Shown: positions 19,113 through 62,763 of the stretch, in pieces
Layout: every line of letters begins with the position of its first letter
Numbering within the stretch: the first letter of the stretch is position 1
Origin: Helicobacteraceae bacterium
GTDB lineage: Bacteria > Campylobacterota > Campylobacteria > Campylobacterales > Sulfurimonadaceae
Reading direction: 5' to 3'
Assembly: GCA_027023805.1 (NCBI GenBank)
Contig: JALVUF010000070.1
Location: 1-62,907 of the forward strand
Length of the DNA stretch: 62,907 bases
The notes under the pieces: model-generated
The model's input: the letters and a program-made list of their open reading frames with translations, nothing else
What the model was told of the DNA's origin: nothing
Databases searched by the model: none
Translations under genes and position numbers: made by a program

Positions 19113-19123
19113 GGTCAGTTACT

Positions 19124-19167
19124 ATATAATACCAAACCCAGCTAAAAAGCTGGGTTTGGTATTATAT
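19124..19167 (+). terminator. Perfect 20-bp inverted repeat between ung and serS
   Basis: The arms 19124-19143 and 19148-19167 are exact reverse complements with an AAAA loop at 19144-19147. The core is G+C-rich (ACCCAGCT/AGCTGGGT) and the outer part A+T-rich. There is no U tract directly after, so it is not a textbook intrinsic terminator, although the AT-rich lower stem could act in either direction. It starts 12 bases after the ung stop and ends 20 bases before the serS start. Confidence 0.6.
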
Positions 19168-19187
19168 ATTTAAAAAATTGGGTAAGC

Positions 19188-59455: not shown

Positions 59456-60373
59456 TTAAAAGGACATAGGCTCTCCTTTTTTAACGGTAAGTAAAGTTCT
59501 TGAATACTCCAACATTGAACCATCGTAATCTTTAACATTTTGTATATTATCGATGAACTTTAACACAAACCACATTCCTCTGGCGTTGTGGCCTGTATTG
59601 CAATATGTAATAATTGGTTTTTTAAGGTTAACTCCGTAACCGCCGTTAGATATTGTGGCTTTTGATATTTTTTTGGATACAAACTTATAATATCCACCTA
59701 TTTTTTTAACCTCTAGAGCAGATGAACTAAGTTTTGCAGTTGGGATTCTACCGTGTCTAGCTAACAACCTATCCGTATCTTGACCTAGAAAATAAGCAGA
59801 ATTCCTAGCGTCTAAGAGTTGAATATTTCTATGGCTATATATAGCTGTGATGACGTCAGGTAAAGAGGCTAGTATATTGTGATCAAACTTATCTATATAA
59901 AAATCTGTCCTTTTTGGCGTATATGACTTTAATGTAATTTTACCTTTATGAGCCGTCCAACTTCTAAATCCACCATCTAAGATCACACTTCTTTTAAAGC
60001 CGTATAGCCATGTATTCCAAAAACCTGCAACGGCATCACAATAATCTCTTTTTTTAATTCCGCCGCTATAAAATACAACAATACTCTTAGAGGTAACACC
60101 TGCTTTATCTAACAAGGCTTCAACTTGCTTCGGTGTATCGTACATGTGTGTGATGTTTCCGATTCTGCCTTCAAACCACTCTTCAAATGGAATATTTATA
60201 GCATGGGCTATATGACCTTTTTTAAAGACGCTAACTCTTCTAGCATCAATAATAACGATATTTTTATCATTTTTATGCTGCTGCAGCCATGCATCACTCA
60301 CTAAATGATTGTGCGGTATAATCGAACCTATAAGCAATATCGCACTTGCGATATAAAGTAGTACATGTTTCAT
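59456..60373 (-). CDS. Periplasmic two-domain rhodanese (sulfurtransferase)
   Basis: A SseA/thiosulfate sulfurtransferase-type protein of 305 residues. Residues 1-20 are a signal peptide or anchor, so it acts outside the cytoplasm. The N-terminal rhodanese domain (~24-145) lacks the Cys (loop FYSGGIKKRD), as is normal. The C-terminal domain carries active-site Cys258 in YCNTGHNARG. The donor and acceptor are unknown; thiosulfate or polysulfide are the usual candidates. It lies between the second porin and a LysR regulator. Confidence 0.85.
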   Translation of the reverse strand: MKHVLLYIASAILLIGSIIPHNHLVSDAWLQQHKNDKNIVIIDARRVSVFKKGHIAHAINIPFEEWFEGRIGNITHMYDTPKQVEALLDKAGVTSKSIVVFYSGGIKKRDYCDAVAGFWNTWLYGFKRSVILDGGFRSWTAHKGKITLKSYTPKRTDFYIDKFDHNILASLPDVITAIYSHRNIQLLDARNSAYFLGQDTDRLLARHGRIPTAKLSSSALEVKKIGGYYKFVSKKISKATISNGGYGVNLKKPIITYCNTGHNARGMWFVLKFIDNIQNVKDYDGSMLEYSRTLLTVKKGEPMSF

Positions 60374-60493: not shown

Positions 60494-60522
60494 TTTCTAA
60501 ACCTAAGTTTTAGGTTTAGAAA
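60494..60522 (-). terminator. Intrinsic terminator of the second porin gene
   Basis: TTTCTAAACCTAA and TTAGGTTTAGAAA form a 13-bp stem with a 3-base loop (arms 60494-60506 and 60510-60522). In the minus-strand RNA it is followed by CATATTTTTT. The stem begins inside the last porin codons and includes its stop codon (60516-60518), so the gene is transcribed apart from the rhodanese gene downstream. Confidence 0.8.
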
Positions 60523-61907
60523 TTATAGTTTAAAACAACTTCTTGCATAATTTGACCATTTTTACCAAAAACAAAATTTGAATTTGTCGGTGTTTGATAA
60601 GTATTTGCTATCGCATTTTTTCTAGCAAACGTATATCTGGCATGTAATCCTTTAAATGTACCGCCAAAGCTATAATAAAGGCTAAAAACAAATTGTGAAT
60701 AACTTGGAAAACCGTATTTATTTAGAACAAAATTTTTAACATCTTGATTATAATGGCGTCCATAACTTATATGAGTTCGCAAGCCTTTAAGTCCTATAAA
60801 TTTAAAATTTTGTTTATAATTTAAAACCCATGCATTAGTTCCGCCTTCACCATCGGCAGTTTCGGGGAATTGGAACGTAAATGTAGCTGGCTTTGCCCAT
60901 TCTCTCGGCATTATTAAACGACCCTGTTTGCCAGTCGTCAGTAGAGCTAACGAAAGTAAAGAGCCTTTATATCCTGCACCTATAACTCCGCCAAACGTAT
61001 GACTAATTTCACCATGTTTCATATATGCTAATTTTTGATTTGCATTACCACCGTTACCGACTGCTCTTTGATCAAAGTACTGGAGTCCTGCGAGGATAAC
61101 AGAATGAGCTATTTTTTTCTTATATTTACCTTCAAAATATGCCATATTGTAGATATTTGAAACATAATAATCCCAAGCTTTTAATACAAAATTGTGCAAT
61201 CCCATGTATCTAGCACCAACGACAAATATTCCACTACTAGACGTATTGCCATAATAATTACCTTTTACATGAGGCTTTGCAATAGGTGCACTACCGTTAC
61301 CATATCCATAGCCTAAAGAATCTCCTACACTTTTCCACCCGGGAGTATTTCTATCCCAAACCGCATTTATATAACCGAGTTGTAGAGTTAAGTGTTGTAT
61401 AGATCTATTTTTAATCCAAGCACCCTGAAAAAGCGATGGTATCATCCAACCATCTTCTGGGTTTAATAGTGGAGTCTTTAACATCATCCTACCTATAGTT
61501 GCCACTGTTTTTAAGTGATGATATTTCAAATAAAGCTGACCCACTCCGTTTACGGCCTTATTATTAGGATTTGTGCTATCGATCATTCTTATAACATATC
61601 TGGAATTTCTATTGTTAGCTGTAGGCTCTGTGCTCTGGTCGTTTACATTACCATTGATTAGATTTGTAGTATAAAATGCTACACCTGCTTGAAAATTATA
61701 AAATGAACCTGTTTGATATTTTAGATGCCCGCCTATCGCACTACCAAAATAATCCTTTAAGCCCGGTGCATTTTGTACATGCATGTGCATATAACGAACT
61801 TGCCCTGATGTTGTTCCGTTGTGTAAAGCTGAACTTAGATTTGATGAAGCAAATAATGCCGGTGCTAAAAGCATAGACATAGCTATAGTGTTTAAATTTT
61901 TTTTCAT
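60516..61907 (-). CDS. OprD-like outer-membrane porin
   Basis: A 463-residue protein with a signal peptide (MSMLLAPALFA), beta-strand periodicity and a C-terminal Phe (VVLNYNF). The N-terminus (SALHNGTTSGQVRYMHMHVQ) matches the start of OprD-type porins of Campylobacterota. The gene has its own terminator, a GGGGA ribosome site before ATG 61907 and an unusual structured leader. It lies between a periplasmic DsrE protein and a periplasmic rhodanese. Substrate unknown. Confidence 0.85.
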   Translation of the reverse strand: MKKNLNTIAMSMLLAPALFASSNLSSALHNGTTSGQVRYMHMHVQNAPGLKDYFGSAIGGHLKYQTGSFYNFQAGVAFYTTNLINGNVNDQSTEPTANNRNSRYVIRMIDSTNPNNKAVNGVGQLYLKYHHLKTVATIGRMMLKTPLLNPEDGWMIPSLFQGAWIKNRSIQHLTLQLGYINAVWDRNTPGWKSVGDSLGYGYGNGSAPIAKPHVKGNYYGNTSSSGIFVVGARYMGLHNFVLKAWDYYVSNIYNMAYFEGKYKKKIAHSVILAGLQYFDQRAVGNGGNANQKLAYMKHGEISHTFGGVIGAGYKGSLLSLALLTTGKQGRLIMPREWAKPATFTFQFPETADGEGGTNAWVLNYKQNFKFIGLKGLRTHISYGRHYNQDVKNFVLNKYGFPSYSQFVFSLYYSFGGTFKGLHARYTFARKNAIANTYQTPTNSNFVFGKNGQIMQEVVLNYNF

Positions 61908-61932
61908 ATTTTCCCCTTATGATTGTTTTAGA

Positions 61933-61992
61933 TTAGTATCCCCAAAAACCCTAGCTTGTTTCAGGAGAAACTAGGATTTTCAGGGATACTAA
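61933..61992 (-). ncRNA. Long structured hairpin in the porin leader
   Basis: In the minus-strand transcript the segment folds into a near-continuous stem of 26 pairs with a UCCU loop (61963-61966) and one 4-base bulge (CAAG). The outer stem is UUAGUAUCCC with GGGAUACUAA. Three pairs are G-U in the minus RNA, where the plus strand would have A-C mismatches. It ends about 25 bases before the porin ATG and has no U tract, so it is not an ordinary terminator. A regulatory leader or protective stem is possible. Confidence 0.6.
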
Positions 61993-62033
61993 GATTATGA
62001 TATACGCTGCTATCTAATGTTATACACTATAAT

Positions 62034-62108: not shown

Positions 62109-62651
62109 CTATTGAACTAAAAGATAACCTTTTTGCATATAATTTAGTATTGCTATATAACCGGCAAGTGTTCTTGAGACATACTTATTAAGCTGGCCAG
62201 GTTTTTCCATATGATGCTCATTTAATGCTTGATCGCAAACAAAAAATTTCGCTCCATGTTTAACTAATGCTTTCATTACACCTATATTTGGATTATTTAC
62301 CAGAAATCTCTTTTTATAGGCTCGATTATTTAATGCTATTTTTGTAGCTGGTCCAAAAATGACACCTACCATATGAATGTGGCTTTGTGGCACACCACCC
62401 GAGCGCAACATATTTGTCATTCGCGCCATTAAAAATAATTTTGCTTCTATACCATGTCTAGTTTTAGGAGTAGTTATCCTAATAACAATATTGTAATCCT
62501 TGTTTTTATTGGGTTGATTTAAAGCATTTTTATAATACTTTATCGGCCCGTAACCGTGCACAAATGGAGTTTCCCATTTAGGACTTCCCGCTGCTAAAGC
62601 AACCTGTGAAATAACAAATAAAGCTACAATAGCTTTTAATAAACTTCTCAT
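62109..62651 (-). CDS. Periplasmic DsrE-family protein
   Basis: A 180-residue protein with a signal peptide cut near residue 20 (VALA-AGS). The DsrE-like fold is seen in YNIVIRITTP, HIHMVGVIFGPAT and GAKFFVCDQAL, with Cys139 in the conserved place. Periplasmic DsrE homologues occur with sulfur-oxidation genes, but few have a known role. It lies upstream of a porin and a periplasmic rhodanese in the same direction, which hints at a periplasmic sulfur-handling group. Confidence 0.8.
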   Translation of the reverse strand: MRSLLKAIVALFVISQVALAAGSPKWETPFVHGYGPIKYYKNALNQPNKNKDYNIVIRITTPKTRHGIEAKLFLMARMTNMLRSGGVPQSHIHMVGVIFGPATKIALNNRAYKKRFLVNNPNIGVMKALVKHGAKFFVCDQALNEHHMEKPGQLNKYVSRTLAGYIAILNYMQKGYLLVQ

Positions 62652-62763
62652 AATCTATCTCCTTTTTAGTTTAGATGTAAGAAGTATAATATAATATGAT
62701 ATTTTCACAAAATTGAATTTGTTAATTATATTGTTTTAATATTCAAATAAGTATAATTTTTTT

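What the first reader, a model, noticed from the sequence alone, without database searches (positions are those of the whole stretch)
61933..61992. 26-pair RNA hairpin in the leader of the second porin
The stem pairs almost without interruption only as minus-strand RNA: three G-U wobbles there are A-C mismatches on the other strand. This asymmetry points to selection on RNA rather than on DNA symmetry. It is not followed by a U tract and ends about 25 bases before the porin start. It does not match any leader RNA I know.
Basis: seen in the sequence. Interest (0 to 1): 0.6.

Follow-up and report, generated by a model that had tools for sequence, protein, structure and literature searches.

The report
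Fossil mobile-DNA hairpin in porin leader
The hairpin just upstream of this porin gene is real, but it is an old copy of a small palindromic jumping-DNA repeat that is scattered through related sulfur bacteria, kept in the message leader of the gene where it may have been recycled as an RNA structure.

Summary
The hairpin is real: 26 pairs in the minus-strand RNA, shuffle z = -5.5, the most stable 66-nt fold in the window, ending 25 nt before the porin ATG. One congener, G005, keeps it at the same place: loop and inner stem are almost identical, and the outer stem has changed but mostly still pairs.

It is not a porin-specific RNA by origin. A covariance model made from these two copies finds palindromes in three genomes of other families (42-50 bits); a pair-permuted control model reaches at most 24 bits in the same genomes. 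Those palindromes belong to a dispersed MITE-like family, (T/A)AGGGCACCTCTAAtAACCCTAG…CTAGGGTTaTTAGAGGTGCCCTT. It occurs in 47 of 228 genomes of the window's own family, and 31 of 41 surveyed copies outside that family carry perfect 4-bp target-site duplications. The window copy (61934-61991) has AGAT/AGAT in the same register.

Relative to the family consensus, its stem has five compensated double changes and no broken pair (P about 7e-4). A sister copy in ccoN leaders of five species covaries too. Exaptation as a leader RNA hairpin is therefore plausible but unproven.

The parts
61934..61991 (-). Palindromic MITE-like element, 58 nt (the hairpin): TAGTATCCCTGAAAATCCTAG-TTTCTCCTGAAACAAG-CTAGGGTTTTTGGGGATACTA in the porin-sense strand
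   Evidence: fold and shuffles; homology to the dispersed palindrome family against a permuted control
61955..61970 (-). Apical loop region UUUCUCCUGAAACAAG, identical in G005 except for one missing U
   Evidence: alignment A3
61930..61933 (.). AGAT, porin-proximal copy of the 4-bp direct repeat (putative target-site duplication)
   Evidence: register defined by 31 of 41 family copies; own letters printed; chance of a 4/4 match about 5% (control)
61992..61995 (.). AGAT, porin-distal copy of the 4-bp direct repeat
61913..61918 (-). Shine-Dalgarno-like AAGGGG of the porin
   Evidence: sequence
60516..61907 (-). OprD-family porin, 463 aa, the gene whose leader holds the hairpin
   Evidence: Pfam PF03573, E 1.7e-20
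62109..62651 (-). DsrE-family protein, the gene upstream of the hairpin; absent at this place in G005
   Evidence: Pfam PF02635; BLAST of the locus against G005
62652..62729 (-). Block conserved with G005 (87.5%), promoter-like, upstream of dsrE here and upstream of the porin leader in G005: the likely start of the transcript that carries the hairpin
   Evidence: promoter role is inference
59456..60373 (-). Two-domain rhodanese downstream of the porin, syntenic in G005
   Evidence: Pfam PF00581

Best explanation
The hairpin is a degenerate single copy of a palindromic MITE-like repeat that inserted, with a 4-bp target-site duplication, just upstream of the porin gene in the common ancestor of this species and G005. 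Because it lies inside the transcribed leader it is read into RNA as a stable 22-23 bp stem-loop. Both species keep it, and it has kept its pairing while its sequence, including the outer tips shared by the intact family copies, has drifted. The most likely present role, if it has one, is as a cis-acting leader hairpin that sets the stability or processing of porin mRNA: a stem long enough for RNase III cleavage, or a block to 5' decay, giving the porin message a different life from the upstream dsrE/tsdA part. Shown: fold, homology, target-site duplications in the family, orthology, pairing maintained. Inferred: transcription through it, and any effect on RNA.
For: Homology: model R1 (own and G005 only) hits G417 49.5, G115 47.4 and G348 42.5 bits in 399 genomes of the order; the pair-permuted control R3 reaches at most 23.8 bits in the same set. 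Dispersal: R2 finds about eight distinct copies in G417, more in G348, G115 and G520, and matches in 47 of 228 genomes of the window's own family, 12 of 18 genera. Mobility: about 264-nt versions with both terminal repeats and no evident ORF; 31 of 41 copies have perfect 4-bp direct repeats at one register against 5% in swapped flanks and at most 1 at shifted offsets; own AGAT/AGAT in that register. One ancestral insertion: same place in G005; absent from the porin leaders of G023 and Sulfurimonas S142. Pairing kept. Leader placing is common: 17 of 28 own-family copies have an SD-preceded start within 80 nt, against 16% of random positions. Parallel: the copy upstream of ccoN in five species has 5 compensated pairs, with 0 of 500 shuffles reaching the covariation score.
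Against: Only two orthologues, both draft assemblies; no transcript data. The target-site duplication is lost in G005. Palindromes can also be kept symmetrical at DNA level by template switching, so maintained pairing does not prove RNA selection. G005 has two broken pairs, and own-against-G005 covariation alone is marginal. The high identity extends into the porin signal-peptide codons, so conservation is not special to the hairpin. The autonomous transposase was not identified.
Confidence: 0.8

Rival explanations
1. Neutral fossil: the same MITE-like copy, transcribed but without function, still palindromic because it is not old enough to have decayed or because template switching keeps the arms alike.
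For: Single copy in two congeners; G005 has two broken pairs; own-against-G005 retention of pairs is only marginally better than chance; G-U against A-C over both is 5 to 2; leader insertions of this family are common.
Against: Own stem against family consensus has 5 double-compensated pairs and none broken (P about 7e-4); loop and inner stem almost identical although fourfold sites in the porin are 48% identical; ccoN-leader parallel with compensation.
Confidence: 0.4
2. Porin-specific regulatory leader RNA (riboswitch-like element or sRNA/protein target) that arose as RNA, unrelated to mobile DNA.
For: Conserved loop, leader position, sense G-U pairs in own.
Against: Homology to dispersed palindromes in many contexts with target-site duplications; absent from more distant porin leaders; no Rfam family.
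Confidence: 0.05
3. Loop-to-Shine-Dalgarno pseudoknot switch: loop UUUCUCCU pairs with AGGGGAAA at the ribosome site and represses porin translation.
For: Eight contiguous pairs possible in this sequence (read).
Against: Only four contiguous pairs in G005, whose SD changed while the loop did not; TCCT-containing loops occur in several family copies next to other genes, so the motif looks inherited.
Confidence: 0.05
4. Intrinsic terminator or attenuator between dsrE and the porin.
For: Very stable stem between two genes.
Against: No U tract on either strand; the terminator scan does not list it.
Confidence: 0.03

Closest known systems
Bacterial MITEs transcribed into mRNA hairpins: Correia/NEMIS elements of Neisseria, ERIC/YPAL, RUP
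   Same: No coding capacity, terminal inverted repeats, target-site duplication, insertion next to genes, fold in mRNA and can change its stability; Correia hairpins are cut by RNase III (PMC10969869, PMC3733652, PMC2649163)
   Different: The short form here is almost only two joined terminal repeats (54-62 nt), with a 4-bp duplication and a different terminal sequence; the host is Campylobacterota; no RNA effect tested
REP/BIME and GTAG/CGTC-tagged palindromes (PMC3733652; Sulfurovum NBC37-1 is listed there)
   Same: Short dispersed extragenic palindromes, suggested roles in mRNA stabilisation
   Different: This family has terminal repeats with 4-bp target-site duplications and 264-nt versions; no GTAG or CGTC tag seen in the aligned copies; link to tyrosine transposases not tested
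5' stabilising stem-loops such as the E. coli ompA leader (own knowledge)
   Same: Stable stem-loop in the leader of an outer-membrane protein mRNA
   Different: Different sequence and origin; position relative to the mRNA 5' end and any stabilising effect unknown here

Membership tests
Bacterial MITE | Dispersed copies in unrelated places of one genome | tested here: met
   Met by the family: about eight distinct places in G417, 32 terminal-repeat matches in G417 and 51 in G368. The window genome itself holds one copy.
Bacterial MITE | Terminal inverted repeats | tested here: met
   About 33-bp ends AGGGCACCTCTAATAACCCTA(G/A)AT(G/A)CTCATAA paired about 245 nt apart; the window copy is a degenerate joined pair.
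Bacterial MITE | Target-site duplication of fixed length | tested here: met
   31 of 41 copies with perfect 4-bp repeats, control 5%; own AGAT/AGAT in the same register; lost in G005.
Bacterial MITE | No transposase gene inside; mobilised by an IS with the same ends | tested here: inconclusive
   Elements are too short to code a transposase. Parent not found: a truncated IS5-type gene in G617 lies beside one matching end; an IS1182 copy is inserted into such a palindrome.
RNase III-processed MITE (NEMIS/Correia type) | Transcript is cut at the hairpin by RNase III | not testable with these tools
   Needs RNA; the 22-23 bp stem makes it plausible.
GTAG/CGTC REP | Unpaired GTAG or CGTC tag at one end | tested here: not met
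   Elements end in paired GGG...CCC followed by direct repeats; judged by eye on the aligned copies.
Any Rfam RNA family | Match at gathering score | tested here: not met
   Only two tRNAs in the window; weak hairpin look-alikes at relaxed threshold.
Intrinsic terminator | G+C-rich stem followed by a U tract | tested here: not met
   No U tract on either strand.

The most novel reading that the evidence does not exclude
In Campylobacterota a palindromic MITE family has repeatedly been domesticated as mRNA leader hairpins: at least twice, upstream of this porin and upstream of ccoN, a copy has been kept across species with compensatory changes, so mobile DNA supplies ready-made leader RNA structures.
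Probability: 0.35. Interest if true: 0.6.

Novelty: new member of a known kind. Interest (0 to 1): 0.4.

Why it matters
It replaces a one-off 'unknown leader RNA' with a testable account: a dispersed palindromic MITE-like repeat, not found described for these bacteria in the papers searched here, places ready-made 20-bp hairpins directly upstream of genes, and some copies seem to be kept with compensatory change. This gives a natural series (intact copies, 264-nt copies, solo ends, old leader copies) for asking when a mobile DNA palindrome becomes a leader RNA element. It also warns that long perfect leader hairpins and their covariation can come from mobile DNA.

Tried and rejected
Rfam at both thresholds: nothing real. 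Exact core pattern in 228 family genomes: only own and G005, which first suggested a porin-specific RNA; the covariance search overturned that. Generic pattern ACCCTAG-N-CTAGGGT: mostly unrelated hairpins. Distant porin homologues: leaders without the hairpin. Promoter directly upstream of the hairpin (CATAAT 61999-61994 in own, TATATT in G005), which would put the stem at the mRNA 5' end: possible, but the two sites do not align and the conserved promoter-like block lies further up. Loop-to-SD pseudoknot: not conserved. Parent transposase: PF01609 search; the IS1182 candidate is an insertion into a palindrome, the IS5-type candidate is truncated. Own row of the table is one base out of register; the right letters are. 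One permutation only was run as control for the covariance search.

Full report
Observation. The minus strand of 61903-62022 folds into the described hairpin at -36.7 kcal/mol, z -5.5 against dinucleotide shuffles, with no shuffle as stable. In a both-strand scan it is the most stable 66-nt fold of the window, and the porin-sense strand is 10 kcal/mol better than the other strand because of three G-U pairs. It lies in the 201-nt gap between a DsrE-family gene and an OprD-family porin and ends 25 nt before the porin ATG. There is no U tract and no Rfam family.

Orthologue. Within the genus only G005 (MAG WFMO01, Helicobacteraceae bacterium S009_32) has a close homologue of this porin (56% identity). 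It keeps the hairpin at the same place: the loop and 3' arm TTCTCCTGAAACAAGCTAGGGTTTTT are identical, the outer stem differs, and 20 of 22 main-stem pairs are kept with two double compensations. Given the transition-rich substitutions, that retention alone is only marginal evidence (P about 0.07 at a transition share of 0.8). G023 and Sulfurimonas S142, with porins 45-46% identical, lack the hairpin. The block tsdA-like cytochrome c, [dsrE only here], hairpin, porin, rhodanese is otherwise syntenic.

What it is. A covariance model of own and G005 alone (R1), searched in 399 genomes of the order, hits three genomes of two other families at 42-50 bits. The same model with its base pairs and loop positions permuted finds nothing above 23.8 bits in the same set. 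The hits are near-perfect palindromes in unrelated contexts: upstream of murG, at the 3' end of a glycosyltransferase gene, between genes. A five-sequence model (R2) shows them to be dispersed repeats: about eight distinct places in G417, further copies in G348, G115 and G520, and matches in 47 of 228 genomes of the window's own family, in 12 of 18 genera, with the consensus (A/T)AGGGCACCTCTAAAAACCCTAG...CTAGGGTTTTTAGAGGTGCCCTT. Longer versions of about 264 nt carry the same 33-bp ends as terminal inverted repeats with no evident open reading frame, up to about 26 pairs in G368. Of 41 copies from other families, 31 have a perfect 4-bp direct repeat immediately outside GGG...CCC, against 5% for swapped flanks and at most one copy at any shifted register. 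These are miniature inverted-repeat transposable elements by structure. The window copy occupies 61934-61991 and is flanked by AGAT (61930-61933) and AGAT (61992-61995) in exactly that register. The parent transposase was not found: an IS1182 element in G617 is itself inserted into such a palindrome at CTAG, and an IS5-type gene next to a matching end is truncated.

Has it been kept as RNA? Against the family consensus the own stem has 13 changes, five pairs changed on both sides, three changed to G-U and none broken out of 21. Neutral scattering of the same changes gives this with P about 7e-4 at the observed transition bias and 6e-3 if all changes were transitions. In G005 19 of 21 pairs remain. 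At two pairs G005 shows the sense G-U state between the consensus and own pairs (C-G, U-G, U-A and U-A, U-G, C-G). However, over both species sense G-U and sense A-C number 5 and 2, so a preference for the porin-sense strand is not established, and DNA-level template switching can also keep palindromes symmetrical. The high identity also runs on into the signal-peptide codons of the porin, so the conserved loop alone is not proof of selection. A helpful parallel: in five genomes of another genus of the same family (18 genera in that family were searched) a copy sits at an orthologous place about 40 nt upstream of ccoN; leader flanks are nearly invariant while the stem changes with compensation in five pairs (97.9% of cells paired, 0 of 500 shuffles reaching that or the covariation score). 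Copies near start codons are common in general: 17 of 28 own-family copies have an SD-preceded start within 80 nt, against 16% of random positions (random positions include coding sequence, whereas the copies are mostly intergenic, so this contrast overstates any preference).

How it most likely works. Transcription probably starts in the block conserved with G005, which here lies upstream of dsrE (62652-62729) and in G005 directly upstream of the porin leader, so the palindrome is read into RNA. A 22-23 bp stem about 15 nt before the Shine-Dalgarno site does not cover the ribosome site; the known behaviour of transcribed MITE hairpins is to stabilise or destabilise mRNA, in Neisseria through RNase III cleavage (PMC10969869, PMC3733652). 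Helicobacter, of the same phylum, uses RNase J and RNase Y in RNA decay (titles and abstracts of PMC7492731 and PMC11821409), for which a stem near a 5' end is a natural barrier (inference). I therefore favour a cis-acting mRNA stability or processing role, at about even odds with a neutral fossil; the stated confidence of 0.8 is for the mobile-repeat origin, not for the function.

Verdict. The literature searched here gave no description of this repeat family.

Noticed in passing
L305, L307, L308, L310, L311 (about 40 nt upstream of the 487-aa ccoN gene): Orthologous copies of the same palindromic repeat in the leader of cbb3 oxidase subunit I in five species; flanks nearly invariant, stem covarying with five compensated pairs.
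   Followed up: partly
62652-62729 and L112:2798-2877: An 87.5% conserved promoter-like block lies upstream of dsrE here but upstream of the porin leader in G005, so dsrE was gained or lost between promoter and porin. In G005 the block holds TGTAGAAA...TTTCTACA flanking the presumed -10, a possible operator.
   Followed up: partly
L230 and L235 (G617): Two copies of an IS1182-type element share the same end; in L230 it is followed by the right half of the palindrome, as if inserted at the central CTAG.
   Followed up: partly
L209-L224: Solo 20-33 nt ends of the repeat (GGGCACCTCTAATAACCCTAAATACTCATAA) stand alone, often just upstream of SD and start codon; origin (decay of one arm or another process) not resolved.
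   Followed up: no
window 60494-60522: Palindrome TTTCTAAACCTAAAACTTAGGTTTAGAAA at the porin-rhodanese junction, terminator-like on both strands and conserved in G005.
   Followed up: no
window 19123-19168: Perfect 21-bp inverted repeat with a 4-nt loop, the second most stable hairpin of the window; not examined.
   Followed up: no
window 61824-61907 (first 84 bases of the porin gene) against L112: The porin's signal-peptide codons are nearly identical between the two species (82 of 84 bases) while the whole porin gene is 65% identical at DNA level, a sharp boundary that suggests strong local constraint or recombination.
   Followed up: partly
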